From Casimicrobium huifangae (GTDB lineage Bacteria > Pseudomonadota > Gammaproteobacteria > Burkholderiales > Casimicrobiaceae), in NCBI RefSeq assembly GCF_009746125.1, contig NZ_CP041352.1, positions 2,278,436-2,342,435 of the forward strand: a stretch of 64,000 bases of DNA. The letters run 5' to 3'. Under the pieces are notes generated by a model. It worked only from the letters and a program-made list of their open reading frames with translations. It made no database searches and was not told where the DNA came from. This document shows, one piece after another, positions 9,867-27,237 of the stretch. Positions within the stretch are counted from its first letter, which is position 1; every line of letters begins with the position of its first letter. Both the position numbers and the translations under genes were made by a program.

Positions 9867-9912
9867 GAGGGTCGGCCGGGAATCGTGCGAAATCCTCAAA
9901 AAAAACGCTTAG
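9867..9912 (+). repeat. Left terminal inverted repeat of the Tn4651-type transposon
   Basis: It begins GAGGGTCGGCCGGGA and ends in ACGCTTAG, which resembles the inner end of Tn3-family repeats. The first 36 bases match the right end at 32 positions. The inner ten bases match more weakly. The length of 46 bp equals that remembered for Tn4651. Confidence 0.85.
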
Positions 9913-9971: not shown

Positions 9972-9989
9972 GTCCTCTTCAACTGAGGC

Positions 9990-10322
9990 TTAGGCTCCGC
10001 AAGCCAGCGCCTTGTTGGCACTGACAAAAACACTGTCAGACTTAGTTTTGTACTCGGCACTCGGCGTTCCATTGTGAGTTTTGCACATTGGAGCGATGAA
10101 ATTGAGCTTCCGAAGCGATTCGTCCTTCATGTTTGGCAAAATGACATGCGCCCCTACCTCAGCGTGGGACTCACATCCTTGCACATGACATTTCGGTGTC
10201 GTGGAAGCCTTCGCAAATTTCTTCCAATGGCCCAGCCAGGAGCCACAACTGCAATTCTTGCCAGAGGTTCCATTCAGATTTTTCATCGTGATGGAGCCAC
10301 TTCCGGTCAGCGTTTTACTCAT
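9990..10322 (-). CDS. Small Cys/His-rich, HNH-like zinc-binding protein
   Basis: The protein has 110 residues and starts MSKTLTGSGSITMKNLNGTS. It has a CSC pair followed by WLGHWKKFA, then CHVQGCESHAEVGAHV and finally APMCKTHNG, a spacing that suggests one zinc site built from Cys and His, like a degenerate HNH fold. The ATG at 10322 has AGGGAG six bases upstream. An upstream ATG at 10328 directly abuts that site and is less likely. The gene sits between the left transposon end and tnpA, on the same strand as tnpA. I half-recognise this as a widespread small family of unknown role. Nuclease activity is not established. Confidence 0.65.
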   Translation of the reverse strand: MSKTLTGSGSITMKNLNGTSGKNCSCGSWLGHWKKFAKASTTPKCHVQGCESHAEVGAHVILPNMKDESLRKLNFIAPMCKTHNGTPSAEYKTKSDSVFVSANKALACGA

Positions 10323-10397
10323 GAACATCTCCCTAAAATGACCACGCACGCGCATGGCAACCCATGATATTGGGATTCCCTCCACAAAATTCAACGG

Positions 10398-13300
10398 TCA
10401 TTCAGTTGGCTTACCCGATTCAACCTCCAGAATTCGGAACCCCTCATCCAGGGCTTCGGCCTTGCGTCGAAAATCCAGCACGTAATCGCCGAAACGATTG
10501 ATGTGCTCCAGCCGGTATGGCGCCAAGCCAGCCAAGACTTCCTGATTGATCACAGCCCCTTCTGCCTGGAGTTGTTTCAGAACGCGGCTCATCCCCACCA
10601 CGTTGTGCAAGATGACCAGGTTGGCGACCAGATGGTTGTATTTGATGATCTTGCGCTGCTCATGGCGCAGGTTTTCGGCAATCACCCCTTCTCCGCCAAA
10701 GAACAGCTTTTTCTCGAAACCGTTGAATTGCTCCGACTTGTTGGTTTCCGCGTGGATGAGTCGGCGCAGTTCGACGTCGCCAACATATTTCAGCAGGAAC
10801 ATGGTTCGGATCACCTTGCCGAGTTCCTTGAAGGCGAAATACAGCTTGTTCTTTCGGCTGTAGGTGCCCAGGCGACGCAGAATAGCCGAGGCCGAAATCT
10901 TCCCGAGCTTGATGGATACCGCCACCCGCAACATGTCCGGCAGATGGGTCTCGATCATCTGCCAGTTGATGTCGTCACTGAACAGCCGGTCGATATGCGT
11001 GAATTTCTTGTTGCTGTCGGGACGGTGGAAGACCAGATCCTTGATGCCACGGATGCGCGGCATCAGCTTGATACCCAAGAGGTGGGAAAGCGCAAACACC
11101 GTGTAGCTCTGGGCCTGGGTATCGCCGTGGATGGTGTCTGGTCGGATATCCGAAGTGTTGGTCATCAGCCCATCAAGGATGTGGGTGCCCTCGTAGGTGC
11201 CGCAGGAAATGAAGTGGCTAAACAGCGCGATGAACTTGTCGGAGACATGGTAATAGCCGATGCCGCCATAACCACCATAGCGGATGTGATGTTCGGAAAT
11301 CAGGTTCTGCTCGTAGAGGTTCCATTTTGTGCCGTCGGCCGAGGCATGCTTGCCTGATCCCCAGTAGCCGGGCAATTCAAACTTGTTGTAGGCATTGATG
11401 ACCTTGACGATGGCTTTTTCCAGCACCTCTTCTGTCACGTACTTGATGTTGAGCCACGCGATCTGCTTGCGGCTCATGCCCCGAATCGATCGTGCTGTCT
11501 GGGTCGGCCCGAGATTGCAGCCATAACAGAACAAGGTGCTGATGACCCGCGGGCGCAATTCCTCGATTCGGCTTTCGGTGCCCATCAAGGGTCGGAAGAG
11601 CTTGTGCAATTGCAGCCAGCGCTCAGTATCGATCAGTACGTCGACGATACTGATGTTCTCCATGTGCTCGGTGATCAACTGGTCGATCGCCTTGATGCCG
11701 GGCGGCGGTTCGCTAGTGGGCGGTTTTTTCAGGATCAGCCGGCCATCGACAATTTCGGCATAAGCATTTTCAGGAAATTCGGCATCGACCGCCTCGGCCG
11801 TCTCCAGCAAAGCCGCTTTCAAGGTCTCGGTGAAGGCTCTGGAATCGGTTTCGACTCCAGTGACCTCGCCATACTGCGCCAATTCGCGATTCAGGGTGTC
11901 GTCGTCAACCAGTTGCTCCCGGTAATCGTCGTAACGCTCGCCATGCTGGATGAACAGGTCACCCGATTTGAGTTCATCGCGGATCGCATACAGGACCGCG
12001 AGTTCGAAGTAACGGCGGTTGATGGCAACGACCTGACCGTCGGCGCGCTCGGTGATGACCAGTTTCCGCCACGTTGTGGGCAGCCACAGAAAATCTTCGT
12101 CGGCATTCAGCCCAACCAAGGATAGCGGAACGATTTCATGCCGGGTGCCGCGTAGCACCTGAAGTGCTTTCATCATCCGCATTAAGGTGTCGTCTTCGCT
12201 ACTGCTCTGCGGATTGACGATTTCGATGCAGTTCAACAACTGGGCGCGAACCATCTTGTAGGGTTGGATGAGGAATGGCAGGTGATTGCGTCCGGCGTAG
12301 GCCATGTGCTCATCGCAGATGGCTACCAGGTCGTCGACCTCGGCGATCAGGCTGCCACCGATGGCTTCCACCCGTTGATGATCCGTCCCGTCGATTTGGT
12401 AGGCCAGCAACATCTCTTTTAACTGGCCGATCAGTCGATCGGTTCGCTGCAGGTGTTCCTGCTGGTATTCGCCCAGTTTGTTGCGCGCCTGATTGTCCAG
12501 GTTTTGAAGCATGCGGACGAACAGGTCGGCCGCATCGTCGAGCGTCTGGGCAAATTGCGAGCGGATGTAGATGACGGCCAGCGCATAGCGCTTCTGGGGC
12601 TTCAGTTCCGCCATTTCTGTCGCATCCAGCGAACGGGCGATGTAGCGGTACTGCTTGAGCTTCGGAACGGGGATGTCGGGCGTTGGCAGTTGGTCAACCA
12701 GCAACTGAAGCCGGCGGATGTGCTGAAGGTAGGAACGGGTTTCCTTGTTGGTCGGTTTTTTCGGTTCCCGTTTGAGCAGGTTCCAGGTGCTGCTGCTCTC
12801 GCCTGACTTGACCTTAAACAGGCCGTCAACCAAAGCTTTCACCTTGGTATCAAGCTGGTCGGCAATGCTCGCAAAATGGACATCATGAATCTTTTCCCGG
12901 GCCTGGATGCCCAACCGATCGAGCGTGGAGAAACCGGGCAACTCGTAGCGATGATGGACCAGTTCTTCAAGCATCACGTTGATGATGTCGGCTACCACAT
13001 GCCGGCTGTCTGCGGCGGTTTCTGCCACGTGCCGCAACCAGGCGCGTCCCTGATCGTCCAGCGGACGAACATTCAGGTAGCGTCGCAAGGCAGTAATCAA
13101 GGTGGTGCGCGCCGTCGTTCGGTCGAACTGCCGAAGCTCATCGCTCCTAGCCGGCCGATACCCCGTTTGGGCCACAATGTGCTGGCGTATCACCGACGGG
13201 ACATCCCTGATGTGGACGAAGTACCCAAGACGCTGAAACAGCTTCAGGTAGATGAATGCTGCCGAGCGGGCAATGGGACGCTTGACGGTTTTGTCAATGA

Positions 13301-13400
13301 ACGCGATTTCATCGGGGGTCAGGGTATAAATCTCGTCGAGATCCTGTGCCGATGGGTCTGCCTTCAGGCGTGGGTACGCGGTCTCGTGAAGTTGGGTCAT
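10398..13400 (-). CDS. tnpA: Tn3-family transposase, Tn4651-like length
   Basis: This 1000-residue replicative transposase forms cointegrates by cutting at the 46-bp terminal repeats. The N-terminal DUF4158-like region (residues about 1-170) and the long helical middle precede the catalytic domain. The first Asp is in GSGKHASADGTKW, the second in TIHGDTQAQSYTVFALS, and the Glu region is IHAETNKSEQFNGFEKKLF. The gene appears intact with no internal stop. The stop of the recombinase gene lies only 6 bases upstream, so the two are probably co-transcribed from a promoter ahead of the AAA ATPase gene. The length matches the roughly 1000 residues of Tn4651 TnpA. Confidence 0.95.
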   Translation of the reverse strand: MTQLHETAYPRLKADPSAQDLDEIYTLTPDEIAFIDKTVKRPIARSAAFIYLKLFQRLGYFVHIRDVPSVIRQHIVAQTGYRPARSDELRQFDRTTARTTLITALRRYLNVRPLDDQGRAWLRHVAETAADSRHVVADIINVMLEELVHHRYELPGFSTLDRLGIQAREKIHDVHFASIADQLDTKVKALVDGLFKVKSGESSSTWNLLKREPKKPTNKETRSYLQHIRRLQLLVDQLPTPDIPVPKLKQYRYIARSLDATEMAELKPQKRYALAVIYIRSQFAQTLDDAADLFVRMLQNLDNQARNKLGEYQQEHLQRTDRLIGQLKEMLLAYQIDGTDHQRVEAIGGSLIAEVDDLVAICDEHMAYAGRNHLPFLIQPYKMVRAQLLNCIEIVNPQSSSEDDTLMRMMKALQVLRGTRHEIVPLSLVGLNADEDFLWLPTTWRKLVITERADGQVVAINRRYFELAVLYAIRDELKSGDLFIQHGERYDDYREQLVDDDTLNRELAQYGEVTGVETDSRAFTETLKAALLETAEAVDAEFPENAYAEIVDGRLILKKPPTSEPPPGIKAIDQLITEHMENISIVDVLIDTERWLQLHKLFRPLMGTESRIEELRPRVISTLFCYGCNLGPTQTARSIRGMSRKQIAWLNIKYVTEEVLEKAIVKVINAYNKFELPGYWGSGKHASADGTKWNLYEQNLISEHHIRYGGYGGIGYYHVSDKFIALFSHFISCGTYEGTHILDGLMTNTSDIRPDTIHGDTQAQSYTVFALSHLLGIKLMPRIRGIKDLVFHRPDSNKKFTHIDRLFSDDINWQMIETHLPDMLRVAVSIKLGKISASAILRRLGTYSRKNKLYFAFKELGKVIRTMFLLKYVGDVELRRLIHAETNKSEQFNGFEKKLFFGGEGVIAENLRHEQRKIIKYNHLVANLVILHNVVGMSRVLKQLQAEGAVINQEVLAGLAPYRLEHINRFGDYVLDFRRKAEALDEGFRILEVESGKPTE

Positions 13401-13406
13401 GCGGGA

Positions 13407-14690
13407 TCAATCCCAATGCCGACCGGTGGCCGGGTCGCGGCAGACCGCCTCCAGAAAACACTCACGGGCATCGGCAACGCGATGGAGTTCATCGAGCAAG
13501 GTGTAGAGATGATCGTCCAAAATATCGGTCGAGGGCGTCGGGACGGCAATCTGATATCGACGGCCCTCCTGGTCCAGGGGCTGTGCCTGAAACCGGGAAA
13601 GGCTGGTACTCGTCATGTCTCGCAGGGCATTGGCGACGGCACGGCGGCTGCCATTGAAGGCTGACAGATCGAGGGAAACCTCGATCGTGGTGAGTGAGAC
13701 CTCGGGCAGGCTGGGCAATTGCGGCGTCGAGGCGGACGATGTTTCCGGTAGCGCCCGATCCAGACCTTGCTCGAAACGTGCTTTCTGGTCGGTGCTGACC
13801 CCATCCAGATAGCGCATGGCGGCCTTCACGTCGCGCCAGCCCACGTAATTCATCAACTCCCGAAGATCCCAACCACTCATCCCGGCCCACTGGGCAAAAC
13901 CGCGGCGTAGCGAGTGGCTGCTGAAGGCTTCGGCATCGGTCACGCCCGCCTGGCTCAATAACTTCCGAAGCATGGGAATGATGCTGCTCGGCGTCAGTTC
14001 AGCCTCGGACAAATGCCCCCAGCGATCAATCTTGCGGAATAGCGGACCCGCCGTCAGTTTGGATAAAGCCAGCCAGTCTTCGACCGCCTCGACGGGGCAC
14101 AGCCGGGACAAGGCTGGGCAGGAGAAGCTTCGCCCTTCGAGATCGCGATCCCCCTTGCTGCGCGGCAAGAAACAGGTCAGCCCTTCGCCGGGCTTGATTT
14201 CAATGAATTCGATGCGAAGATTGGCCAGTTCGTCGGAGCGAAACCCGCGCCAGAATCCGAGGAGAATCAGGGCGCGATCCCGGGTGTGCCGCAGGGCACT
14301 GGCCGAATCTCCCCGGCCGACTGCCGCTGCGGTGGCTGCTACCAGCCAGTCAGTGACGCTGTTCAATAGTTCCAGTTCCAGCGGCTTGGCCCGCTTTTCC
14401 CGGGCAGGATGGAGCGTTCGGATACCTTTGAGCAATTGCCGGATCTTCGGGGCCTTGGTCGGATCCGGAAAGCCATGATCCTGGTGCCAGCGCGACAGCG
14501 CCGCGAGGCGGTGTTTCAGGGTGTTCAGCGACAGGGATTCGGCGTAGGCGGCCAGGTAACGGGCAATCGAATCGATGGTTGCCGGCAACAAGCCTCCCCA
14601 CTCAACCTCGAAGTGCTGGATGGCTGACGCATAGCTGCGTCGGGTGTTGGCCCGTTCGGCCGCATCAAGGTAGAGATCGACCTGGCTCAT
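13407..14690 (-). CDS. tnpS: Tyrosine recombinase (TnpS-like cointegrate resolvase)
   Basis: This 427-residue phage-integrase-family protein has the catalytic set visible. The first Arg is in FWRGFRSDELANLRI, the HxxR box is SSHSLRRGFAQWAG, and the Tyr is in VGWRDVKAAMRYLD. The N-terminal SAM-like core-binding domain covers about residues 5-95. A C-terminal extension of about 110 residues follows the catalytic domain and is not typical of integrases. The ATG at 14690 has AGGGA upstream. The open frame to 14960 only overlaps the subtilase gene. In Tn4651-type transposons such a protein resolves cointegrates together with TnpT. It is tightly linked to tnpA here. The symbol is by analogy. Confidence 0.85.
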   Translation of the reverse strand: MSQVDLYLDAAERANTRRSYASAIQHFEVEWGGLLPATIDSIARYLAAYAESLSLNTLKHRLAALSRWHQDHGFPDPTKAPKIRQLLKGIRTLHPAREKRAKPLELELLNSVTDWLVAATAAAVGRGDSASALRHTRDRALILLGFWRGFRSDELANLRIEFIEIKPGEGLTCFLPRSKGDRDLEGRSFSCPALSRLCPVEAVEDWLALSKLTAGPLFRKIDRWGHLSEAELTPSSIIPMLRKLLSQAGVTDAEAFSSHSLRRGFAQWAGMSGWDLRELMNYVGWRDVKAAMRYLDGVSTDQKARFEQGLDRALPETSSASTPQLPSLPEVSLTTIEVSLDLSAFNGSRRAVANALRDMTSTSLSRFQAQPLDQEGRRYQIAVPTPSTDILDDHLYTLLDELHRVADARECFLEAVCRDPATGRHWD

Positions 14691-14707
14691 TGCATCCCTG
14701 GCTGGAT

Positions 14708-16933
14708 TCAGGTTCGTGCACGCAGCGGCAGCGAGACTTGCGGCTCCAGTGCCTGCAGCACGGCGTGTGCCTTGAGAATGTCTTGGTGCAATTGGGCATG
14801 CTTCGGTGCGTGCACCGTGACCACTAGGGCATAGCGAATGGCGGGCGCTCCGGATGATGCGAGGCCACCGGCCTCGCGAGCGTTGTAATGCACGTCGAAC
14901 ACCGGTTCGAGCAGACTGCTGCCGTAGTAACTGTTTTCCGCATGCAGCACAGTCTCCCACTTGCCCAGATCGGTCCGCAGTTCGGCTTCGGTCCGGAACT
15001 CGGCCGCTGGGAAAAAGCTGACCGACGACGCATTGACGGCACCTGCCTTGCGCTTGCTGCTGTTGGGACGGAAGGTGATACCGAGACCGGCTTTGGTATA
15101 GGCGCCGGCATCCTGCGGATCGACCGGACTGGCATAGCAGAACGTCGCCCGCAAGCGAACCTTGCCTTCCAGTTGGAAAGGCGGCAAAGGAATGGGGGCC
15201 CGCAGGAACTTCCCCGGGCGAAGTTCACCCTGGTAAATGATCCGGGCTTCCCCGTCGCCGCAGGTGATCAACTGGTTCAGATCAGCCGGCACCCGGCCCC
15301 AGCCGACGTGATGGACATCATGCTCGTCCTTCGTTTCGCAGCCGTGGATCAGCAGCGATTTGATGGTCAGCGGATGAACCGCGTCGCCCAGAATGGCGCG
15401 GATGCCGACTGCCGAGCGTAAGGCGAGCGGAGCCGCGAAGCTGGTTCCCAAGGTCGCAGCGAGGTTGGGCCGCGTGCCGGGCGCTGCGACGTGAAAATAT
15501 TCCTTCGGTGCGCCACCGAAAGCAACGACATCCGGTTTCCGGCGCCCCGGGCTGCGACCGGGGCCGGTGGCACTGTAGCTGGCCCGTTTCCAGTCGTTAC
15601 CGGTCCGGTCGGTGGCGCCGACGGACAAGGCGTTGACGCTATCAGAAGGTACTTGGATGCGATTGAGGCTGAGTGCGGCATCACGTTCCCCGTTATTGCC
15701 CACAGCCACCGTCATCAAGGTTTCCCCATCGCTCAGGATGCTGTCGATGACGGCCGTCCAGGCATGGACATCCTGGTCTTCGATCGGCAGGTCAGGCCCG
15801 AGGCTGAGATTGATGAACTGATACTGGCGCGAGAGCAGTACGGTTTCCACATGGCCGAGCGTGCGATACAACTCGTAGGGATCTTCCCCGTCAATTTTTG
15901 CGTCCAGGACACGGTGATGATCGACCGGCGCATAGGGGCGCTCCGCCGTTGCTTCGGGCTCAATCGGCCCGAACAGCACCGCCGAGGTGACGCCCAGTCC
16001 GTGCTCAGTGAAATCGGGTACGTCGCTGGCCTCCTCGTCGGCCAGAAAATAACGGCGGACATAGCTTTCGAGAACGTGTTTTTCCGGTAGGCCACCATCG
16101 AGAATGGCGACCTTGGGCTCGCGGGAGAGCGGTTCTCCACTTGGCAAGGAGAACGACACTGCAAGCGGCATGCTGCGGGTAACCGGACGGGCTGCTCGCA
16201 AATGCGGCATCGGCCGGACGACGCGCGTCAGCGTGAACTGGGCGAGGTTTTCCAGGCCGGTCGCATCCCCTTCGACTGCCACGAAGAGCAGCCGACCGGC
16301 TTCAAACTCGAACTCGCCATTGACCCTGAAGCCGCAGTCCTTGGCGTAGTCGGCAAATAAGGCGCGAACATCCGAGGCATCGCCCTCGGGTGGCAGATGC
16401 AGACCGACCTCGAAAACATGGCCGACATTGGTGCCTTCCAGATGCAGGCGATCCGCTGGGGTCATGGCCGCAAAGGTCTCGATGCGGGCAAATTGCTCGG
16501 CAACTGGCATCTGTTCGTTCAGGCTGCGGGCGAAGGCCGGGAAATTACCCATTGCGGCCCGCGTGCCCGACACGAAGAGTTCCGTCGTCTCCATTTCCGG
16601 TGGTGCTTTCTTCTGGGTCTGGCGACGCGGCTGAATGCGACGGGTGCGCGATCCAACTGACGAGAGTCCCACCTGATCGAGCAGCAGCTTCGGGAAATAC
16701 GACTTGGCCAGATAAGCCGGATGCAATACCAGACGAGCCACCGCCAGATCATCGGCACAAGCCTTCGCTGGGAGCTCCTGGAAAATGCGGTTGGCAGTCT
16801 CGATCTCCGGCACGATGATGCGCTTGGCCTCGGTGAGCGTATAGGGGTGCGCCTTGTCGCCAACCTTCTTCTTGGGCGCTTCGATCGGATAGGTCAGCAA
16901 CTCGGCGCGGCCGATCAGGTATCGCGTGGTCAT
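14708..16933 (-). CDS. ietS: S8 subtilase family serine protease (IetS-like)
   Basis: This 741-residue protein has a long N-terminal region (about 1-275) without a signal peptide, so it is probably cytoplasmic. The subtilase domain has its Asp in KVAILDGGLPEKHV, its His in FTEHGLGVTSAVLFG and its Ser in LGTSFAAPLALRSA. All three catalytic residues are present. A C-terminal beta-rich region follows. Its ATG directly follows the stop codon of the AAA ATPase gene (TAAATG), so the two are co-translated. This ATPase plus subtilase pairing is that of ietAS, described first as a plasmid toxin-antitoxin/incompatibility pair in Agrobacterium and later among anti-phage defence genes. The protease would be the effector. 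Substrate is unknown. Confidence 0.8.
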   Translation of the reverse strand: MTTRYLIGRAELLTYPIEAPKKKVGDKAHPYTLTEAKRIIVPEIETANRIFQELPAKACADDLAVARLVLHPAYLAKSYFPKLLLDQVGLSSVGSRTRRIQPRRQTQKKAPPEMETTELFVSGTRAAMGNFPAFARSLNEQMPVAEQFARIETFAAMTPADRLHLEGTNVGHVFEVGLHLPPEGDASDVRALFADYAKDCGFRVNGEFEFEAGRLLFVAVEGDATGLENLAQFTLTRVVRPMPHLRAARPVTRSMPLAVSFSLPSGEPLSREPKVAILDGGLPEKHVLESYVRRYFLADEEASDVPDFTEHGLGVTSAVLFGPIEPEATAERPYAPVDHHRVLDAKIDGEDPYELYRTLGHVETVLLSRQYQFINLSLGPDLPIEDQDVHAWTAVIDSILSDGETLMTVAVGNNGERDAALSLNRIQVPSDSVNALSVGATDRTGNDWKRASYSATGPGRSPGRRKPDVVAFGGAPKEYFHVAAPGTRPNLAATLGTSFAAPLALRSAVGIRAILGDAVHPLTIKSLLIHGCETKDEHDVHHVGWGRVPADLNQLITCGDGEARIIYQGELRPGKFLRAPIPLPPFQLEGKVRLRATFCYASPVDPQDAGAYTKAGLGITFRPNSSKRKAGAVNASSVSFFPAAEFRTEAELRTDLGKWETVLHAENSYYGSSLLEPVFDVHYNAREAGGLASSGAPAIRYALVVTVHAPKHAQLHQDILKAHAVLQALEPQVSLPLRART

Positions 16934-18106
16934 TTACTTGAGCCCTCTGCCTTTACGGGGGGAAGGCCCCGCGTGTTTGCGAATGGTGTCGCGAGCGACG
17001 CCCGTCATTTGGCTGATCTGCATATGCGTATGTCGCCCCGCCTTGGCCAGCGCAATCGCGAGGTTGAGGCGTTCTGCCTTGCTCAAGGCTTCCTGACGCT
17101 GACCCAGGGCTGATCCGATCAACTGTTCCAGCGGCGCCATCTGTAAGGCATGGCCGCGACGCAAAGCGTTGATGCTGCGCTCCACGTCTGAGAGAGACTG
17201 TCCCTGCAACCCAGCAGCCAGGACATCGATCCAGGACGCGAATAAGGTCAGATCGTCGCCGAGGAATCGCTGGATGGCCGTTGCAATCGCCGCAGCATCC
17301 GGTGCATCGAACTTGAGGACCAGATCGAAACGTCGCCACAAAGCTGGATCAACCAGTTCCGGGTGGTTGGTGGCAGCCAGCAGCAGGCCGGTATCGGGCC
17401 ACTGATCGACTTCCTGGAGCATGACGGTAACCAGGCGCTTCAGTTCGCCAATATCCGACTCGTCGCTGCGCCGCTTGGCGATGGCATCGATCTCGTCGAG
17501 TAGCAGAACGGCAGCGTGTTGTTTGGCATGATCCAAGGCTGCCCGCAGGTTGTTGCCCGTCTTGCCGAGCAGGCTACTCATAACCGCCGTCAGGTCGAGT
17601 ACCCACAGAGGTTTGCCTAAAGCGCTGGCAATCCAGCGGGCCGAGAGTGTCTTGCCGACACCGGGAGGGCCTACCAGGATGGCTGAACGGGTCGGGCTAA
17701 TGCCACGGGCGGCCAACCGCTCACGTTCCTGTCGTTCGCGAATGATGGCACCGATGGCGTCATGAACACTGCCGGGAAGAATCGGTGGAGGCAATCCGAC
17801 GCGGTCATCGAAGACCCGGATCAGCGCCAAACGGGAATCGCCGTCGACGGGTAGCGGTGCCTCGCCGGCGTCCGTTATCGGTGCGCCACGACGCAGGATG
17901 GCGTTACCTGCCGAGCGGGTCTGGGATGCTTTCAGGGACTGATCGAGAAGCGAAGCCAGTTCGGGGCGTTGTTGGCGGTATTTCCGGATGAGCCGCGCCA
18001 GCAGCAGACGGGTATCCTCTTGCGCATCTGAGGCGGCAAGGCGGGCTAAATTGGCGAAATCAATTTCAAGATCGTCAATCTCGCCTTTGTTTGTTTTTGT
18101 TCCCAC
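16934..18106 (-). CDS. ietA: AAA family ATPase (IetA-like)
   Basis: This 390-residue AAA+ protein has Walker A (VGPPGVGKTLSARWIA), Walker B (AVLLLDEIDAIAKRRSD), a sensor-1 stretch (LLLAATNHPELVD) and an arginine-finger-like WRRFD. The C-terminal 30 residues (HMQISQMTGVARDTIRKH) look like a helix-turn-helix, so the protein may also bind DNA. The start is GTG at 18106, with AAGG seven bases upstream. It is first in a run ietA-ietS-tnpS-tnpA. In the known pair the ATPase restrains or activates the protease. Its putative DNA-binding tail and the tandem repeats in the promoter suggest autoregulation, which is inference. Confidence 0.82.
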   Translation of the reverse strand: MGTKTNKGEIDDLEIDFANLARLAASDAQEDTRLLLARLIRKYRQQRPELASLLDQSLKASQTRSAGNAILRRGAPITDAGEAPLPVDGDSRLALIRVFDDRVGLPPPILPGSVHDAIGAIIRERQERERLAARGISPTRSAILVGPPGVGKTLSARWIASALGKPLWVLDLTAVMSSLLGKTGNNLRAALDHAKQHAAVLLLDEIDAIAKRRSDESDIGELKRLVTVMLQEVDQWPDTGLLLAATNHPELVDPALWRRFDLVLKFDAPDAAAIATAIQRFLGDDLTLFASWIDVLAAGLQGQSLSDVERSINALRRGHALQMAPLEQLIGSALGQRQEALSKAERLNLAIALAKAGRHTHMQISQMTGVARDTIRKHAGPSPRKGRGLK

Positions 18107-18127
18107 AAAATTGCCTTATATGGTGCA

Positions 18128-18171
18128 GAATTTTATGGCGAATTTTATGGCGAAAATACATATTTGGTCAA
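18128..18171 (-). promoter_or_regulatory. Putative ietA promoter with 12-bp tandem repeats
   Basis: On the minus strand TTGACC (18166-18171) and TAAAAT (18142-18147) are 18 bases apart, a credible sigma70 promoter. The -10 lies inside one of two adjacent identical 12-bp repeats (gaattttatggc, 18128-18139 and 18140-18151, read on the plus strand). This is a likely operator for the IetA C-terminal helix-turn-helix. Confidence 0.5.
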
Positions 18172-18208: not shown

Positions 18209-18535
18209 TTAACAACTTTTTCTGCCAGCGTGGCAAGTTGTGCCGTCCGTGTGTGTCAATGCCTGAACACAAGGATCGACGCTCTGCTGGCACCGATCTG
18301 GCTGGACCGCGAGGCTCGTAAGTACGTCACGTGCCGATGTGCTGAGCTTGCCGGTGGTCAGCACGTCACCGCGCCGCTCCGACATGCAGTCTTTCGCGCC
18401 GACGGTCCGCACCTTGACGCCAGCGCATCCAGCACAGAGCGCCGCGATGGCGAGCAACCACAAGTACCTGACGAGGCGCCCACGCCTGTCGAGCAGGCCC
18501 GCGCAGGTCCACGGAGGCCTTTCCAGGTACCTCAT
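18209..18535 (-). pseudogene. Truncated lipoprotein gene at end of efflux operon
   Basis: The start overlaps the stop of the outer-membrane efflux gene by 4 bases, showing it was the next gene of the same operon. The N-terminus has a hydrophobic stretch and lipobox (LAIAALCAGCAGVKV), so it should be a lipoprotein. Only about 100 residues remain, and the last 20 (after about CVQALTHTDG) look like read-through into transposon sequence. N-termini of this kind occur on envelope-anchored alpha/beta hydrolases, but the catalytic part is missing, so the family is a guess. The gene marks the junction where the efflux cassette was joined next to ietA. Confidence 0.55.
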
Positions 18536-20049
18536 TGCGTCGTATCTTCTTCCCGCAATGGCGCATTGCCGATTGCCTTGTTGACGGTCACATAGCGCGT
18601 GTTCAAACGACCTTCGCTACTAACCAGATCGCGACGCGCTTGCAGATAGCTGCGCTGCGCGTCGAGCACAGCGGTGAAATCACTGATTCCGCCGTCGTAG
18701 CGCGCCTGGGCAAGCCGGTAGGCATCGCCGGCCGCGTCGCTGCGGGCTTTGAGTTCCTGAGCCTGCTGTTGTTCGGCGCGGTAGGCGGACAGCGCATCGT
18801 CGATCTCCTGCCAGGCTTTCAGCACGGTTTTCTGGTAATTCACCGCCGCTTCCTGTTGTTGCAGCTCGCGCAATTGCACGGTGGCTGTGCGCCGGCCATG
18901 ATCGAAGATCGGCAGGTTGAGGCTGGGGCCGATCGACCAGGTGCGACTGCCCCAGTCGGAGAATTCGCCACTTAGGTAGGACTCGAACCCGAATTTGGCA
19001 CCAAGCCGGATGCTGGGATACAGATTGGCCTTGGCAATGCCGATGTTGGCGGTGGCGCCGTGCAGGTGCGCTTCGGCGGTGCGGATGTCGGGGCGGCGCA
19101 GCGCCACTTCCGATGGCAGACCGAGGGCGAGGTCGGGCAGCGCAGTCCTGGCGCCGGCATCGCGTGGCACCAGTTCGGCTTGCAGCGCACCCGGGCGCTC
19201 GCCCAGCAGCAGGGCGATCTGGTTGGCGCTGGCGGCTTCCTGTGCCAGCAGCGGCGGCAACTGCGCCTTCAGCGCGGCCAGTTCGGCGCGCTGGCGTTGC
19301 AAGTCGGTGTGATCGAGAACGCCGCCCTCGACACGCGCCTGCAACAGCCCGGCGCGCTCTTCCAGCGCGGCGATATCCTCGCGCATCAAGCGAATCTGCC
19401 GCTGGGCGGTGCGCAGCTCAAAGTAGTTGCGCGCCACGTCGCTGGCCAGGCTGAGGCGGGCCTGGTCGAGCAGTGCAGCCTGCTGGCCGACATCGGCGTC
19501 GGCGGCTTCCACCGAGCGGCGTACGCGGCCCCACAAATCCAGCTCCCACGAAGCGTCGAAACCCGCCTGGTACAGCGTGAACGGCTCGGCCAGCAGCTCG
19601 GTGAGGCGGGGGTCGGCCCCCATGATGCCGAGCATGCGCGTGCTGGCACCGCTCTCGCTCTGGCGCTGGCGGGTGGCGCTGCCGCTGGCGTTGACTTCCG
19701 GCCCGCGCTGCGCGGCCACCGTGCTGCGCTGCGCGCGTGCCTGGGCGAAGTGCAGCGCGGCCGTCTGCAGGTCCGGGCTGGCAGCGAAAGCACGGCGCTG
19801 CAAGGCATTGAGGGTTGCGTCGTCGAAGGCCTGCCACCATATTGCTGGCAATGCCTGGGTAGCTTCGCCCGGGATGCGCAGCGAGGCATCGCCGCTGCGC
19901 CAGCTCGTCCAGTCATCCGGTGCTGCGGGCGTGGGCCTGACGAAATCCGGCCCGACGGCACAACCGGTCAAGGCCAGGGCCAGGGCGAGTGCGGAGGCCG
20001 CCAAGCCGAAGTGCCGTGGTTGAAGAGGGGAGTGTTGGAGGTCAAACAT
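18532..20049 (-). CDS. Outer-membrane efflux lipoprotein, NodT/OprM family
   Basis: This 505-residue TolC-type channel subunit has a signal peptide and lipobox (ALALTGCAVGPDFVRP). The N-terminal family signature CAVGPDFVRPTPAAPDDW and two outer-membrane efflux repeats with long helices (for example YFELRTAQRQIRLMREDIAA and ARYDGGISDFTAVLDAQRSY) are present. It would form the exit duct for the ABC exporter encoded immediately upstream. The gap to the permease stop is 14 bases. Finding a channel gene directly attached to an ABC-2/HlyD set suggests a self-contained tripartite exporter. The substrate is unknown. Confidence 0.92.
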   Translation of the reverse strand: MFDLQHSPLQPRHFGLAASALALALALTGCAVGPDFVRPTPAAPDDWTSWRSGDASLRIPGEATQALPAIWWQAFDDATLNALQRRAFAASPDLQTAALHFAQARAQRSTVAAQRGPEVNASGSATRQRQSESGASTRMLGIMGADPRLTELLAEPFTLYQAGFDASWELDLWGRVRRSVEAADADVGQQAALLDQARLSLASDVARNYFELRTAQRQIRLMREDIAALEERAGLLQARVEGGVLDHTDLQRQRAELAALKAQLPPLLAQEAASANQIALLLGERPGALQAELVPRDAGARTALPDLALGLPSEVALRRPDIRTAEAHLHGATANIGIAKANLYPSIRLGAKFGFESYLSGEFSDWGSRTWSIGPSLNLPIFDHGRRTATVQLRELQQQEAAVNYQKTVLKAWQEIDDALSAYRAEQQQAQELKARSDAAGDAYRLAQARYDGGISDFTAVLDAQRSYLQARRDLVSSEGRLNTRYVTVNKAIGNAPLREEDTTQ

Positions 20050-20063
20050 GCGGATACCTACGA

Positions 20064-21179
20064 TCAGGAAAGCCGGTTGCGGAACAGCCAGGCCGCCAGC
20101 GGCAGCGTGGTGGCGGCCAGCACCAGCAGGGGGATGAATTGGCGCCAGATATCGATGAGGCCTGCGCCTTCGAGATAGACGCGGCGCACGATGTCCATGC
20201 CGAAGCGCAGCGGATTGGCGTAGGTGGCAAGCTGCAGCACCTCAGGCATGTTGCGCACCGGCGTGAACAGGCCGGAGAGCAGCATCAGCGGCATGATCAG
20301 CAGGAAGGTGTAGAGCATCGCCTGTTGCATGGTCAGCGACAGGGCGGATATCGACAGGCCCACGCCAACGGACGCGACGGTGAAGACGATCAGCCCGAAG
20401 TAGAGCAGCCCCACCGAGCCCTGCATCGGGATCTCGAACCAGAAACGGATGATCAGGAAGATGATGGTGGACTGCAGCAGTCCGATCAGGATGGAAGGCA
20501 GCGCCTTGCCGATCAGGATCTGCATCGGGGTGAGCGGCGTCACCAGCAACTGGTCGAAGGTGCCTTGCTCGCGTTCGCGCGCCACCGACAGCGCCGCCAG
20601 CAGCAGGGTCTGCAACATGCTCAGCGCGGCAATCAGTCCAGGCATCATGTTCCAGCGTGACTCCAGGTTGGGGTTGAACCAGGCGCGCCGTTCCACGCGA
20701 ATGCCTGGGGCACCGGTGCCCAGCGAGGCATTGTAGGCGGCCACGATGGCGCCGACGTGGCTGGCGGCCGAACCCGCCGTCGAGGAGTTGCGCCCGTCCA
20801 GAATGAGCTGCAGGGGCGCGGGCTGGCCAGAACCCAGCCGTGCCGCGAAGTCCGGCGGAATACTGAGCACCAGCAAGGCCTTTTCTGCATCGACCATCTC
20901 GGCGATCTGCCGCGGCGAGGTGAGCGTGGCGGCGCGCACGAACACGCCGGTGCCATCGATCCGCGCCAGCAGCTCGGTCGACGCCGCACTGCGGCTTTGA
21001 TCCAGCACGGCATAAGGCACGTGCGTGAGGTCGTAAGTGGCGCCATAGCCATATAGCAGGGCTTGCAGGAAGGCCGGGGCAATCAGCAGCGCACGGCTGG
21101 CCGGCTCCTTGATGAGTGCAAGGAGCTCTTTGCGCACCAAGGCGATGATCTGGGTGAATGTGACAATGAAGGAAGCCAT
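20064..21179 (-). CDS. ABC-2 type transporter permease (YbhR/YbhS-like), second
   Basis: This 371-residue permease has one N-terminal membrane helix (about 23-43), a large periplasmic domain (about 45-180) and five further helices in the C-terminal half, the usual ABC-2 layout. The conserved REREQGTFDQLLVTPLTP segment before the helices is the family signature. The start is the ATG at 21179 (MASFIVTFTQIIALVRKEL). The frame extends further upstream only as overlap with the other permease. It pairs with the gene at 21185, the two giving a heterodimeric pore. Spacing of 5 bases implies one transcript. Confidence 0.9.
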   Translation of the reverse strand: MASFIVTFTQIIALVRKELLALIKEPASRALLIAPAFLQALLYGYGATYDLTHVPYAVLDQSRSAASTELLARIDGTGVFVRAATLTSPRQIAEMVDAEKALLVLSIPPDFAARLGSGQPAPLQLILDGRNSSTAGSAASHVGAIVAAYNASLGTGAPGIRVERRAWFNPNLESRWNMMPGLIAALSMLQTLLLAALSVAREREQGTFDQLLVTPLTPMQILIGKALPSILIGLLQSTIIFLIIRFWFEIPMQGSVGLLYFGLIVFTVASVGVGLSISALSLTMQQAMLYTFLLIMPLMLLSGLFTPVRNMPEVLQLATYANPLRFGMDIVRRVYLEGAGLIDIWRQFIPLLVLAATTLPLAAWLFRNRLS

Positions 21180-21184
21180 GGCTG

Positions 21185-22315
21185 TCAGTCCAGTGACTTG
21201 CGCAGCGTGCGCTGTGTGGCGAACACCAGCACCACGGCGTAGAGGGAAAGGATGGCGACGCTGCGCAGGATGGTCGGCCCATGGTCGCCCGCCAGGAACA
21301 GCGTCTTGATCAGGCCCATGAAATGCGTGGCGGGCAGTAGTTGCGCTACGACCTGGATGACCAGCGGGACGTTGCGCAGGTCGAACACGAAGCCGGAGAG
21401 CATCATGGCCGGCATGAAGCTGACCAGCATGGCCAGCTGGCTGGCCTCGAACTGGTTGCGCGTCTTGCCGGAAATGAACAGCCCCAGCAGCAGCGAGACG
21501 AGCAGGTAAAGCATCGAGGCCAGGCACAGGATGGGCAGGGAGCCGCGCAGTGGCACCTCGAACAGGAAGCGCGCCGCCAGCAGGCACAGCACCAGGTCGA
21601 TGGCACCGACCACCAGGTACGGCGCCAGCTTGGCGAAGATGAGTTCCAGCGGCCGCACGGGTGTGACGAACAGCGACTCCAGCGTGCCGCGCTCCCATTC
21701 GCGCGCGATCAGCAGCGACGTGAGGAAGGCGCCGATCAGCGTTAGCACCAGAACGATCAGTCCGGGCACCAGATACCAGCTGCTGTTGCCGGTTTCGTTG
21801 AACCACATGCGCTGCACCACCTCCACGCGCCCCAGCGCGGGTGGCTTGTTACCAGCACGGTCAACCTGCTTTTGCGCCCAAGTAGCGATGGCGCTGTTGA
21901 CGTAGCCCTCCACGGTCTGCGCGGTGGTCGAGTTGACGCCGTTGAGCACCAGCTGGATGCGGGCATCGCCTGCTGCGAGCCGGCGCGAGAAGTCCTGCGG
22001 CACGCGCACGATGGCGTCCACCTCGCCTGCGCGCAGCAAGCGCTCGGCTTCGGTCATGTGTGTGACCCACACCGGTGAGAGGTAGATCGTTCCCTGGAAA
22101 CCCGCGACCGCCGCGCGCGCATCGGGCGCGCTGTCTTCCAGCACCACCGCGACCGGCGCGTTCTTCACATCGAAAGACAGGCCGTAGCCGAACAGCAGAA
22201 TCAGCGCAATCGGCAGCAGCAGTCCCACCGCCAGGTTGCTCTTGTCGCGCAGCATCTGGCGCACTTCCTTGCGCAGCAGGGCGATGAAACGCCGCATGAA
22301 CTCCGGATGCCTCAT
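21185..22315 (-). CDS. ABC-2 type transporter permease (YbhS/YbhR-like), first
   Basis: This 376-residue ABC-2 permease begins MRHPEFMRRFIALLRKEVRQ. A membrane helix at about 25-45 is followed by a periplasmic domain and five C-terminal helices. The family segment AREWERGTLESLFVTPVRP is present. A second ATG six residues in (MRRFIALL) is an alternative start. The first start overlaps the end of the ATPase gene by 4 bases (ATGA), supporting it. It would combine with its paralogue at 20064 and the double ATPase to export a hydrophobic or toxic compound, by analogy with YbhFSR. Confidence 0.9.
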   Translation of the reverse strand: MRHPEFMRRFIALLRKEVRQMLRDKSNLAVGLLLPIALILLFGYGLSFDVKNAPVAVVLEDSAPDARAAVAGFQGTIYLSPVWVTHMTEAERLLRAGEVDAIVRVPQDFSRRLAAGDARIQLVLNGVNSTTAQTVEGYVNSAIATWAQKQVDRAGNKPPALGRVEVVQRMWFNETGNSSWYLVPGLIVLVLTLIGAFLTSLLIAREWERGTLESLFVTPVRPLELIFAKLAPYLVVGAIDLVLCLLAARFLFEVPLRGSLPILCLASMLYLLVSLLLGLFISGKTRNQFEASQLAMLVSFMPAMMLSGFVFDLRNVPLVIQVVAQLLPATHFMGLIKTLFLAGDHGPTILRSVAILSLYAVVLVFATQRTLRKSLD

Positions 22316-24111
22316 GCGCGGCCTCCCGGGTTCCTGTCCCGGCCGTCGGCGCGACCCTGCTCGACGATGGAAATGAAGGCGCTGTTCATGTCGGTGCCGC
22401 CGTCACCGCCTGCCTGCTCGCGCACCGCCTGCGGCGTGCCAAGCGCCAGCACCTTGCCGGCATCCTGGATGGCGATGCGGTCGCAATACTCGGCCTCTTC
22501 CATGAAGTGCGTGGTGACGATGACCGTCACCCCCGCCTGGGCGAGCGCGGTGATGGTGCGCCAGAAGGCGCGCCGCGCCAGCGGGTCGATGCCGCTGGTG
22601 GGCTCATCGAGGAACAGGATGTCTGGCTCGTGCAGCAGGCCGGTGGCCATGGCCAGGCGCTGCTTGTAGCCACCTGGCAGCAGGCCGCTGATGGCGGTGG
22701 GCTCCAGGCCGAACTGGGCGAGCGTGGCCGCCACTCGCGTGCGCAGCGCCTGGCCGCGCAGCCCATAGGCACCGCCGAAAAATTCCAGGTTCTCGCGCAC
22801 CGTCAGGTTGCCGTAGAGCGCGAACTTTTGCGACACGTAGCCGATGCGCGCCCGTGCCTGGGCGCGCGCCGTGCGCAGATTCATGCCGGCCACTTCCAAA
22901 TGCCCGCTGCTGGCCGGCAGCAGACCGCAGAGCATGCGGAAGGTGGTTGTCTTGCCTGCTCCGTTGGGACCGAGCAGACCGAAGATCTCGCCCCGCGCCA
23001 CATCGAAGGAGGTGCTGGCGACAGCGGTGAAGTCGCCAAACGTGCGTACCAGATCGCGCACCACGATCACCGGCCCGTTCCCATTGCCATTCGAGGACAT
23101 CTGCGGGGACGACGTGGGCGCTCCGGGAGACGATGCCGATACCCGGGTCGTCGACTCCGCGCCCTCGGCATGTTGCTGGCGCAGCATCATCATGAAAGCG
23201 TCTTCGAGTTCTTCCGGGCGCGGCTGGTAGTCGATGTCGCCGAGCAGTCCGTCCAGCACGTGGGTTTCCACCTTGGGCTGGCGGATGAACCACACCGCGC
23301 CGCCTTTGGGCACCGCATCGACGATCAATCGATCGGCGTCGATCAATCGTGCCTGCAGGTCGCGGGCGGGCATACCGGACGGTGGCGTGGCCACATAGGT
23401 CACCCCTCGGGCGCGTTCGCGCAGCGCGCCCGGAGCACCTTCGGCGAGCAGCAGGCCTTTGTGCATCACGAACACCTGGGTGCAGCGCTCGGCCTCGTCC
23501 ATGTAGGCGGTGCTGACGATCACGCTCAGCCTTTCGTCATCGACCAGCTGCTGCACGATCTGCCACAGATCGCGGCGCGACAGCGGATCGACGCCCACGC
23601 TGGGCTCGTCCAGCAGCAGCAAGTCCGGCGAGCGCACCAGCGTGCAGGCCAGACCCAGCTTCTGCTTCATGCCGCCCGAGAGCTTGCCGGCCGGACGTGC
23701 GGTAAAGCGCGCCATGTCGGTCATTTCCAGCATGCGCGCGAAGCGCTCGCGGCGCACTGCCTGCGGCACGCCGTGCAGATCGGCGTAGAGGTCCAGATTT
23801 TCCTGCACGCTCAGGTCTTCGTACAGGCCGAAGCGCTGCGGCATGTAGCTGATGCGGTCCTGCACCGTTTGCGGGTCGTGGGCGACGTCGATGCCCAGCA
23901 CGCGCAATGTCCCCGCATCGGGCTTGAGCAGTCCGGCCATCATGCGCATCAAGGTGGTCTTGCCGGCACCGTCCGGGCCGACCAGGGCCGTCAACTCACC
24001 CGCCCGCACCGTCAGCGACAAGCCGCCCACCGCATGCAAGGGACCGCCGCCCGGCGCCTCGAAGGTCTTGCGCAGCCCATCGGCGACGACCGTCGCGCCG
24101 CCATCGCTCAT
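22312..24111 (-). CDS. Double ABC ATPase (YbhF-like)
   Basis: This 599-residue protein has two complete nucleotide-binding domains. The first has Walker A GPDGAGKTTLMRM near residue 45, signature LSGGMKQKLGLA and Walker B LLLLDEPSVGVDP. The second has Walker A GPNGAGKTTTFRM near 385, signature LPGGYKQRLAMA and Walker B ILFLDEPTSGIDP. The linker (about 300-350) is Ser/Gly-rich. One polypeptide can therefore energise the two ABC-2 permeases. It overlaps the genes on both sides by 4 bases. YbhF of Escherichia coli has the same fused arrangement and is linked to drug and cation tolerance. Confidence 0.93.
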   Translation of the reverse strand: MSDGGATVVADGLRKTFEAPGGGPLHAVGGLSLTVRAGELTALVGPDGAGKTTLMRMMAGLLKPDAGTLRVLGIDVAHDPQTVQDRISYMPQRFGLYEDLSVQENLDLYADLHGVPQAVRRERFARMLEMTDMARFTARPAGKLSGGMKQKLGLACTLVRSPDLLLLDEPSVGVDPLSRRDLWQIVQQLVDDERLSVIVSTAYMDEAERCTQVFVMHKGLLLAEGAPGALRERARGVTYVATPPSGMPARDLQARLIDADRLIVDAVPKGGAVWFIRQPKVETHVLDGLLGDIDYQPRPEELEDAFMMMLRQQHAEGAESTTRVSASSPGAPTSSPQMSSNGNGNGPVIVVRDLVRTFGDFTAVASTSFDVARGEIFGLLGPNGAGKTTTFRMLCGLLPASSGHLEVAGMNLRTARAQARARIGYVSQKFALYGNLTVRENLEFFGGAYGLRGQALRTRVAATLAQFGLEPTAISGLLPGGYKQRLAMATGLLHEPDILFLDEPTSGIDPLARRAFWRTITALAQAGVTVIVTTHFMEEAEYCDRIAIQDAGKVLALGTPQAVREQAGGDGGTDMNSAFISIVEQGRADGRDRNPGGRA

Positions 24112-25109: not shown

Positions 25110-25224
25110 GATGAATATCCAGAAAGGGACATGAGGGGAGGATGTATTGCGCACCAGATATTAAATTGATTTTAAAGTTAATCTATTCGACAATGCAAGC
25201 CTTATCTACTTTGGAAAACAAGGG
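25110..25224. promoter_or_regulatory. Divergent control region between efflux operon and TetR gene
   Basis: This AT-rich gap contains ATTAA and TTAAT arms separated by 13 A/T-rich bases (around 25160-25182), a possible TetR operator. Both genes start within it, so autoregulated divergent control is likely. Exact -35/-10 boxes are not clear to me. Confidence 0.35.
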
Positions 25225-25887: not shown

Positions 25888-26007
25888 GGCAATCTTCAGT
25901 TATCTACGATTCGTACTGCTCCAAGGACAAAATTTCAAAAAATCAGCCATCACACTAAATAATCAACCATTATCACGTCTTAGATTTCGTATATTTAAAA
26001 CATTGCG

Positions 26008-26044: not shown

Positions 26045-26067
26045 ACGGTACGAAATTCGAGGATGCC

Positions 26068-27144: not shown

Positions 27145-27237
27145 ATCTGGATTGTCAGTTCAGCGGTGGAATTTTTGAACCGGCCAAGTACCATTCTCAG
27201 CAACGAATACGACAGATCGAAAAACGGAGACAACTAC

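What the first reader, a model, noticed from the sequence alone, without database searches (positions are those of the whole stretch)
10398..18171. IetAS-like defence pair runs into the resolvase and transposase genes as one unit
ietA, ietS, tnpS and tnpA are all on the minus strand with gaps of 0, 17 and 6 bases. A single promoter with 12-bp tandem repeats lies ahead. ATPase/protease activity and transposition may therefore be co-controlled. The pair could act as an addiction or anti-phage device that keeps the transposon, or as a regulator of transposition itself. This coupling is the strongest candidate for a new biological arrangement here.
Basis: partly seen in the sequence, partly recalled or inferred. 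Interest (0 to 1): 0.8.

Follow-up and report, generated by a model that had tools for sequence, protein, structure and literature searches.

The report
Defence pair wired to transposon genes
A jumping gene element carries a toxin/defence gene pair directly in front of its own recombinase and transposase genes with no sign of a second switch, and relatives put other stress-sensing genes in the same spot, which suggests that the cargo may control when the element jumps.

Summary
ietA, ietS, tnpS and tnpA run on the minus strand with gaps of 0, 17 and 6 nt behind one conserved sigma-70-like promoter with a 12-bp direct repeat. They belong to an 18.2-kb Tn3-family transposon of the TnpS/TnpT type (ends at 9867 and 28087). 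The rst core lies by tnpT (25958-25974), about 11 kb from tnpS.

The order is not chance: ietAS precedes tnpS in six further loci, four of them followed by tnpA (whole in two, interrupted or partial in two). On the tnpS tree the label needs five changes; one clade is rejected (p 4.6e-8). IetAS is not essential, however: closely related tnpS-tnpA pairs follow MerR, CusRS, LysR, nrd, rhodanese and other genes. Homology between elements with different cargo mostly starts at the tnpS start codon and, on the other arm, often ends at the rst core.

Best reading: in this clade tnpS-tnpA has lost its own promoter region and is read from the operon joined in front of it. IetAS, with known toxin-antitoxin relatives, is one such driver and probably keeps the element in the cell. 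Co-transcription is inferred, not shown. New variant of a known kind.

The parts
9867..9905 (+). terminal inverted repeat next to tnpA (GAGGGTCGGCCGGGAATCGTGCGAAATCC...)
   Evidence: Pattern match with 0 mismatches; 2 matches in the window, 0.08 expected; 34 of the first 40 bases agree with the other end.
9990..10394 (-). orfX, 134 aa, between tnpA and the end; no Pfam, PADLOC or NCBIfam match
   Evidence: conserved behind tnpA in L011, L012 (split), L014, L015, L050
10398..13400 (-). tnpA, Tn3-family DDE transposase (1000 aa)
   Evidence: Pfam DDE_Tnp_Tn3 8.7e-145, NCBIfam transpos_Tn3 675 bits against cut-off 500
13407..14690 (-). tnpS, tyrosine recombinase (427 aa); homology between elements with different cargo mostly begins at its start codon
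   Evidence: Pfam Phage_integrase; junction analysis
14708..16933 (-). ietS, subtilisin-like S8 protease (741 aa), predicted toxin/effector; D, H and S motifs present
   Evidence: Pfam Peptidase_S8, PADLOC IetS; motifs and dN/dS 0.03-0.05
16934..18106 (-). ietA, AAA+ ATPase (390 aa), predicted antitoxin/partner; C-terminal helix-turn-helix-like segment
   Evidence: Pfam AAA, PADLOC IetA; Walker motifs; C-terminal helices at pLDDT about 76-84 in an otherwise poor model
18131..18154 (-). two tandem copies of TTCGCCATAAAA, overlapping the -10: candidate operator
18142..18171 (-). sigma-70-like promoter of ietA (TTGACC-18-TAAAAT)
   Evidence: a site at the matching place in 6 of 6 ietAS loci examined; cross-element homology begins at -47 to -70 from ietA
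18532..25154 (-). second cargo: outer-membrane efflux protein, two ABC-2 permeases, double ABC ATPase, HlyD adaptor
   Evidence: Pfam
25225..25887 (+). TetR/CecR-type regulator (of the efflux cargo by inference)
   Evidence: Pfam TetR_N, CecR_C
25958..25974 (+). rst core-like site AATAATCAACCATTATC; a frequent border between elements with different cargo
26020..26056 (+). second conserved palindromic block before tnpT (candidate TnpT site/promoter)
26068..27144 (+). tnpT, KfrA_N DNA-binding coiled-coil protein, divergent from tnpS
   Evidence: Pfam KfrA_N; 40% identity to the protein at the TnpT position of TnXax1
27166..28008 (+). hypothetical gene (UPF0489 / peptide-arginase-like, weak)
28049..28087 (-). 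terminal inverted repeat next to tnpT
   Evidence: 3 mismatches to the pattern

Best explanation
This is a TnpS/TnpT-type Tn3-family transposon (9867-28087). Its recombinase-transposase operon (tnpS-tnpA) has been cut off from the ancestral rst/promoter region, which stayed with tnpT at the other arm. It is now read from the promoter of the IetAS pair joined directly in front of tnpS. IetA (AAA+ ATPase, antitoxin-like) and IetS (S8 protease, toxin-like) act as a maintenance/defence module that penalises loss of the element. The 12-bp repeats at the ietA promoter act as an operator, possibly bound by IetA itself, so the state of the module also sets how much TnpS and TnpA is made. In sister elements the same seat is taken by other genes, often stress-sensing regulators (MerR, CusRS, LysR). 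Shown: element ends, gene order, recurrence, conserved promoter, module exchange with borders mostly at the tnpS start codon and often at the rst core, purifying selection on ietAS. Inferred: the shared transcript, the operator, the toxin-antitoxin action in this host, and the effect on transposition.
For: Gaps of 0, 17 and 6 nt. The only minus-strand promoter-like site in 13000-18600 is the one before ietA; no terminator-like site lies in the gaps. Promoter-like sites in the 150 bp before tnpS: 0 of 21 cargo-coupled loci chosen (expected 1.04; not all independent), against 2 of 7 loci with tnpT next to tnpS (expected 0.47). Homology before ietA begins at -47 to -70 and takes in the repeats in 5 loci; a promoter-like site is there in 6 of 6 examined. 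ietAS precedes tnpS in WIN, L012, L022, L029, L030, L054 and L125. The tnpS tree needs 5 changes of the ietAS label and rejects one clade, p 4.6e-8; without the long-branch rows it needs 4 and p is 9e-46. Cross-cargo homology starts between -3 and +18 of the position of the tnpS start codon in 119 of 127 pairs. On the tnpT arm, pairs with L060, L065, L067 or the window stop at -110 to -126, the edge of the rst core, with one exception (L065-window, -158). The nearest upstream gene with a Pfam or record name lies on the tnpS strand in 16 of 16 module types, five of them MerR, CusS or LysR. A MerR stop overlaps the tnpS start as ATGA in L015. dN/dS of ietA and ietS 0.03-0.07. Relatives of the pair are published TA systems.
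Against: No transcript data. The promoter scan is crude: 5 of 7 loci of the classical layout also show no site, so absence of a site says little. Co-orientation with the upstream gene is common in bacteria anyway (general knowledge), and in L038, L043/L044, L045 and L055 the nearest ORF of any kind is an unnamed one on the opposite strand. Some named upstream genes end 148-386 nt away or further (1.2 kb in L043, 0.7 kb in L046), enough room for a separate promoter. A weak terminator-like hairpin lies inside ietS at 15522-15502 (3 sites found in the region, 4.5 expected). On the tnpT arm many pairs share sequence beyond the rst core, to -156 to -216 or over 1 kb, so the core is not the only border. 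The window copy has no 5-bp target duplication, so its present mobility is unproven. NCBIfam's cut-offs for the anti-phage IteA/IteS equivalogs are not reached.
Confidence: 0.6

Rival explanations
1. IetAS is an ordinary passenger that landed in front of tnpS; tnpS-tnpA is expressed mainly from its own weak promoter hidden in the 3' end of ietS (and of whatever cargo is there), so there is no functional coupling.
For: Closely related tnpS-tnpA pairs are widespread behind many unrelated genes. A sigma-70 consensus scan misses other promoter types and found no site in 5 of 7 classical loci either.
Against: Across module types the sequences before the start codon share next to nothing, so no common promoter lies there; a separate hidden promoter would be needed in each module. 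Gaps are about 10-27 nt, or the genes overlap, in several modules. The ietA promoter is conserved among the ietAS loci while the sequence before it is not.
Confidence: 0.3
2. IetAS acts directly on transposition: the protease or ATPase cleaves or remodels TnpA/TnpS, as ClpX does for MuA (recalled), and so regulates it.
For: Tight linkage and repeated re-joining of ietAS with tnpS.
Against: Closely related TnpS/TnpA occur without IetAS, and other ietAS clades at or below 61% identity were not followed by tnpS in the stretches held.
Confidence: 0.07
3. The four-gene order is a chance joining seen only here.
For: The window copy lacks a target duplication and is wedged between pieces of other mobile genes.
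Against: Six further loci with ietAS before tnpS, in several genera; purifying selection on ietAS.
Confidence: 0.03

Closest known systems
Toxin-antitoxin pairs embedded in Tn3-family transposition modules (Lima-Mendez et al. 2020, PMC7157771; abstract and passages read)
   Same: A two-gene maintenance module next to the resolvase gene of a Tn3-family element, suspected of co-expression with tnpA; several independent acquisitions.
   Different: There small type II pairs abut the res site; the single TnpS/TnpT example (TnHdN1.1) has its pair between tnpS and tnpA. Here the pair is AAA+ ATPase/S8 protease, lies upstream of tnpS in the same direction, and is 7.9 kb from the rst core.
IetAS of pTiC58 and SgiAT of SGI1 (Huguet et al. 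2016, PMC5006074; abstract, opening text and one legend read; the pTiC58 paper itself not read)
   Same: AAA+ ATPase antitoxin and S8 protease toxin in one operon, shown in SGI1 to stabilise a mobile element.
   Different: No coupling to a recombinase-transposase operon is described in what I read. The copy here falls below NCBIfam's IteA/IteS cut-offs.
TnXax1 / Tn4651 subgroup of Tn3-family transposons
   Same: TnpA, tyrosine recombinase TnpS, divergent TnpT, rst core, GAGGGT-type ends; tnpA about 60% identical.
   Different: In TnXax1 tnpS and tnpT are neighbours around rst. Here 11 kb of cargo separates tnpS from rst and tnpT.
Mercury transposon Tn501, whose transposition is reported as mercury-inducible by reading from mer into tnpR (recalled; no such statement was seen in the listings)
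   Same: Cargo operon feeding the transposition genes.
   Different: One metal operon with res in front of tnpR; no exchange of unrelated drivers at the recombinase start codon (recalled).

Membership tests
IetAS (PADLOC definition) | AAA ATPase matching IetA next to S8 protease matching IetS | tested here: met
   1.2e-72 and 1.9e-39; adjacent, gap 0
IetAS (PADLOC definition) | NCBIfam anti-phage equivalog cut-offs (IteA 510 bits, IteS 900 bits) | tested here: not met
   211 and 110 bits; so not claimed as that equivalog
IetAS (PADLOC definition) | intact active sites (S8 D/H/S motifs, Walker A/B) | tested here: met
   both proteins in window, L012, L029, L030; IetS motifs also in L022 and L125. 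The script's IetA reading of L022 failed there; its Walker motifs are seen in the alignment
IetAS (PADLOC definition) | anti-phage or toxin-antitoxin activity | not testable with these tools
   needs assays
Tn3 family, TnpS/TnpT (Tn4651/TnXax1) subgroup | Tn3 DDE transposase | tested here: met
Tn3 family, TnpS/TnpT (Tn4651/TnXax1) subgroup | tyrosine recombinase TnpS plus divergent TnpT and rst core | tested here: met
   TnpT by position, KfrA_N domain and 40% identity to the TnXax1 counterpart; rst core by sequence likeness only
Tn3 family, TnpS/TnpT (Tn4651/TnXax1) subgroup | tnpS and tnpT adjacent with rst between them | tested here: not met
   still divergent, but 11.4 kb apart with cargo between; likewise in the three plasmid relatives W01-W03
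Tn3 family, TnpS/TnpT (Tn4651/TnXax1) subgroup | terminal inverted repeats of about 40 bp | tested here: met
   34 of 40
Tn3 family, TnpS/TnpT (Tn4651/TnXax1) subgroup | 5-bp target duplication | tested here: not met
   none in the window copy; AGACA on both sides of the 61.9-kb L012 copy
TA pairs of Tn3 transposition modules (PMC7157771) | pair directly upstream of the resolvase gene | tested here: met
TA pairs of Tn3 transposition modules (PMC7157771) | pair abuts the res/rst site | tested here: not met
   rst core at 25958-25974, 7.9 kb from the ietA start

The most novel reading that the evidence does not exclude
A whole clade of Tn3-family transposons has given up its own recombinase/transposase promoter. 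tnpS-tnpA is instead hitched to the tail of whatever signal-responsive operon is joined at the tnpS start codon (metal sensors MerR and CusRS, LysR regulators, the IetAS toxin-antitoxin/defence pair). The cargo's own stress signal would then set the jumping rate, and elements would swap drivers by recombination at the tnpS start and at the rst core.
Probability: 0.35. Interest if true: 0.8.

Novelty: new variant of a known kind. Interest (0 to 1): 0.62.

Why it matters
Lima-Mendez et al. (PMC7157771) left open whether TA promoters in Tn3 elements drive the transposition genes. Here the natural variants needed for that test exist: closely related tnpS-tnpA units behind a defence pair, metal sensors and a LysR regulator. 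If the coupling is real, phage attack, element loss or metal stress would directly raise transposition, tying defence and resistance spread to the stress that selects for them. The borders at the tnpS start codon and the rst core also give a concrete picture of how such elements trade arms and cargo.

Tried and rejected
A search for inverted repeats around the four genes found no convincing pair; the second end is 18 kb away and was recognised only after comparing with the Azospira plasmid. A serine-resolvase reading of tnpS was rejected by Pfam. A recombination site at the tnpS start itself was considered: no core like the rst core is seen there and third codon positions vary (by eye), so I do not claim one. 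Homologous crossover near the 5' end of tnpS is supported in one case: L022 against L024 has 23 of 150 mismatches in the first 150 nt and 14 of 350 in the next 350 (p 4e-5); against L028 p is 3e-4, against L023 only 0.07 (profile). A recurring Gabija-transposase linkage, as a parallel to the left element, was looked for and not found (27 of 300 genomes with a match, the neighbours not systematically read; no plasmid record covers 80% of the GajB-transposase stretch). A viral-contig search with IetS found no relative. The IetA model was poor (mean pLDDT 47), so no fold search was made. PDB sequence searches: IetA 294 matches, of which the 60 shown are AAA+ ATPases; IetS none. The dN/dS of L022 ietA failed (2 codons aligned). 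Papers: IetAS with Tn3 gave 0 papers; IetAS with transposon gave 8 (listing only, none opened). Listings were seen; passages were opened of PMC7157771, PMC5006074, PMC11878078, PMC6304161 and PMC8562856.
Full report
WHAT IS THERE. Pfam and PADLOC name them AAA ATPase/IetA, S8 protease/IetS, phage-integrase-type tyrosine recombinase and Tn3 DDE transposase. The promoter-like site TTGACC-18-TAAAAT at 18171-18142 is the only minus-strand promoter-like match in 13000-18600 (2 found on both strands, 1.3 expected), and none of the 3 terminator-like matches lies in a junction. The repeat TTCGCCATAAAA x2 is at 18131-18154.

THE WHOLE ELEMENT. A transposon end seen beside the Azospira relative occurs twice in the window, at 9867 (+) and 28087 (-), with 0.08 matches expected; 34 of the first 40 bases of the two ends agree. 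Between them lie orfX, tnpA, tnpS, ietS, ietA, an efflux operon, a TetR-type regulator, a KfrA_N protein and a weakly matched hypothetical gene. The KfrA_N protein stands where TnpT stands in TnXax1 and is 40% identical to it. Before it lie two conserved blocks: an inverted-repeat core AATAATCAACCATTATC (25958-25974) and a second palindromic block (26020-26056). I take the first as the rst core, by likeness. tnpS and tnpT are divergent as in TnXax1, but cargo fills the space between them. On the three plasmid relatives the same gap is about 31 kb (Azospira pAZI09), 8 kb (Variovorax RA8) and 12 kb (X. euvesicatoria) (coordinates). A tnpT relative was found in 17 of 18 genomes or records searched; none in that of L029. 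The L012 copy is 61.9 kb with the 5-bp duplication AGACA; the window copy has none.

DOES THE ORDER RECUR? A scan of 84,980 species genomes with tnpS gave 49 loci. Of these, 44 had a readable tnpS start and at least 300 bp upstream; with the window and four plasmid loci that makes 49. ietAS stood directly before tnpS in 6 of these 49: WIN, L012 (Dechloromonas hortensis), L022 (Azonexus), L029 (Zoogloea oleivorans), L030 (Rhodocyclaceae) and L054 (Dechloromonas). tnpA follows whole in L012 and L022, interrupted in L029 and partial near a contig end in L030; L054 has an interrupted tnpS and no tnpA match on its short contig. A search with IetS itself is not biased towards tnpS. It found matches in 14 of 199 genomes of the family of L012. 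Those at 80% identity or more were L012 and L030 again, L111/L125 (ietAS, then tnpS), L108 (ietAS, then other sequence right after the ietS stop; the first bases of the gap still look like those of L012, and no tnpS match follows) and L114 (the stretch ends inside ietS). IetS relatives at or below 61% identity were not followed by tnpS in the stretches held, usually 1.5 kb. Other searches for IetS: 3 of 149 relatives of the window's genome, its own included; 9 of 369 genomes of its class, its own included, mostly weak partial matches; 43 plasmid records, best identity about 50%, of which two were opened and showed no tnpS-tnpA.

IT IS A SEAT, NOT A FIXED PARTNERSHIP. Before close relatives of tnpS stand other genes: MerR, CusS, LysR, rhodanese with methyltransferase, ribonucleotide reductase genes, HAD hydrolase; in more distant relatives MerR, CobW (twice), MFS, DUF6527, superoxide dismutase, an RND pump and, in L043/L044, a HigB-like toxin with a helix-turn-helix partner. 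The nearest ORF with a Pfam or record name lies on the tnpS strand in 16 of 16 module types, ietAS included; five are MerR, CusS or LysR. The nearest ORF of any kind is an unnamed one on the other strand in L038, L043/L044, L045 and L055. Loci with tnpT directly next to tnpS were not counted. Ends of the named upstream ORFs range from an ATGA overlap with the tnpS start (L015) to 1.2 kb away (L043); most lie within 200 nt. Since neighbouring bacterial genes often share a strand, co-orientation alone is weak evidence.

THE BORDERS. For 127 pairs of loci in different upstream clusters with tnpS alignments of at least 78% identity, homology begins between -3 and +18 of the position of the tnpS start codon in 119. 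Clusters were defined by shared sequence beyond -60, so only starts above -60 were possible; the pile-up near 0 is the finding. Near-copies are counted more than once. On the tnpT arm, pairs with L060, L065, L067 or the window stop at -110 to -126 from the tnpT start, at the outer edge of the rst core, except L065-window (-158); most other pairs share sequence to -156 to -216, and some over more than 1 kb. Two pairs are striking. L060 and L077 are 100.0% identical over 1,233 bp of the tnpT arm, while the tnpS-tnpA arms of L001 and L024 (the same plasmid, and the same genome) are 77.9% identical. L067 and L068 are 99.8% over 1,247 bp, with tnpS-tnpA arms 81.9% identical (L018 against L011). That L077 and L024 are two ends of one element, and likewise L068 and L011, and L067 and L018, is inferred from genome and orientation. 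I infer exchange of arms at rst by the TnpS/TnpT system.

HISTORY OF IETAS IN THE SEAT. On a tree of 35 tnpS sequences (of 49 plus L125; partial rows and some further loci were left out) the ietAS label needs 5 changes, all forced by well-supported branches, and holding the six together is rejected (p-AU 4.6e-8). Without the long-branch rows (23 rows, five with ietAS) it needs 4 changes, again all forced, and p-AU is 9e-46: WIN is sister to nrd-L001, L012 to a MerR element, L022 stands among CusRS elements, L029/L030 apart. Synonymous distances WIN-L012 differ between the genes (ietS 1.05, ietA 0.90, tnpS 0.69, tnpA 0.46), as expected after re-joining. In L012 the sequence before the ietA promoter is a broken remnant of a response-regulator gene like that beside CusS in other elements (91-93% identical over 69 residues); in L029 it is a MerR gene. 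The cassette thus appears to have taken the place of, or slipped in behind, the former driver.

THE SWITCH. Upstream of ietA, homology among WIN, L012, L022, L029 and L030 begins at -47 to -70 and takes in the TTCGCCA repeats and, in the longer alignments, the -35; beyond it the sequences are unrelated, except L029-L030. A promoter-like site is present in 6 of 6 loci examined; L125 keeps one exact TTCGCCA. In the 150 bp before tnpS the same rule finds 0 sites in 21 cargo-coupled loci (1.04 expected) and 2 in 7 classical loci (0.47 expected). That fits loss of the promoter but is weak. The C-terminal residues of IetA (about 341-380) are predicted as three helices with a helix-turn-helix look at pLDDT about 76-84; the rest of the model is poor. 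Binding to the repeats is a guess.

WHAT IETAS DOES. Published relatives: sgiAT of SGI1 is a working TA system that keeps SGI1 when an IncA/C plasmid is present, with 50% and 36% identity to the pTiC58 pair (PMC5006074, abstract and one legend). An AAA-ATPase/subtilisin pair is a working TA system in mycoplasma (PMC8562856, passages). PADLOC and NCBI also list the family as anti-phage. The window pair is under purifying selection (dN/dS 0.03-0.07) with its motifs intact. I therefore take maintenance of the element as its main pay-off, with phage defence possible.

PLACE AMONG KNOWN THINGS. Lima-Mendez et al. (PMC7157771, abstract and passages) describe small type II TA pairs at the res sites of Tn3 elements, with one TnpS/TnpT case (pair between tnpS and tnpA), and ask whether TA promoters might drive tnpA. 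The present layout differs in pair type, position and distance from rst, and shows the seat being shared with metal sensors. The searches for IetAS with Tn3 or transposon gave nothing that joins them in title or shown abstract (the eight papers were not opened). I file it as a new variant of a known kind.

Noticed in passing
3130-7514 (+) and 7653-9866 (+): A Gabija pair (GajA, GajB) stands 138 nt before a second, truncated Tn3-family transposase on the same strand, just outside the left end: another defence pair ahead of a transposase. Linkage elsewhere was looked for and not found. One paper notes IetAS and Gabija together in P. aeruginosa isolates (PMC11878078, passage).
   Followed up: partly
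28088-28500: Outside the right end lies what looks, by eye, like a C-terminal coiled-coil piece of another KfrA/TnpT-like gene, and there is no target duplication, so the element seems wedged into remains of another transposon.
   Followed up: partly
L060/L077 and L067/L068, from about -114/-126 of tnpT: Near-identical tnpT arms (100.0% and 99.8%) end at the rst core beside unrelated cargo, while the other arms are only 78-82% identical: likely natural arm exchange at rst.
   Followed up: yes
L043:6565-8013 and L044: Two Lysobacteraceae elements carry a HigB-like toxin and a helix-turn-helix partner between tnpT and tnpS, on the tnpS strand: a second TA pair in a TnpS/TnpT element (L043 by Pfam; L044 by ORF likeness).
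   Followed up: partly
9990-10394 (-): orfX, 134 aa with Cys/His pairs that look zinc-finger or HNH-like by eye, conserved between tnpA and the end in several elements; no family match.
   Followed up: no
L125:15970-19488: ietAS precedes a tnpS of another lineage, then an HNH-domain ORF, with a transposase on the opposite strand that is 40% identical over part of its length to the truncated one at 7653-9866 of the window.
   Followed up: partly
L050: Paenacidovorax caeni carries tnpA and orfX at 100% and partial tnpS at 98% identity, so this or a very close element is in another genome; its contig begins near the tnpS fragment, so the cargo is not seen.
   Followed up: no
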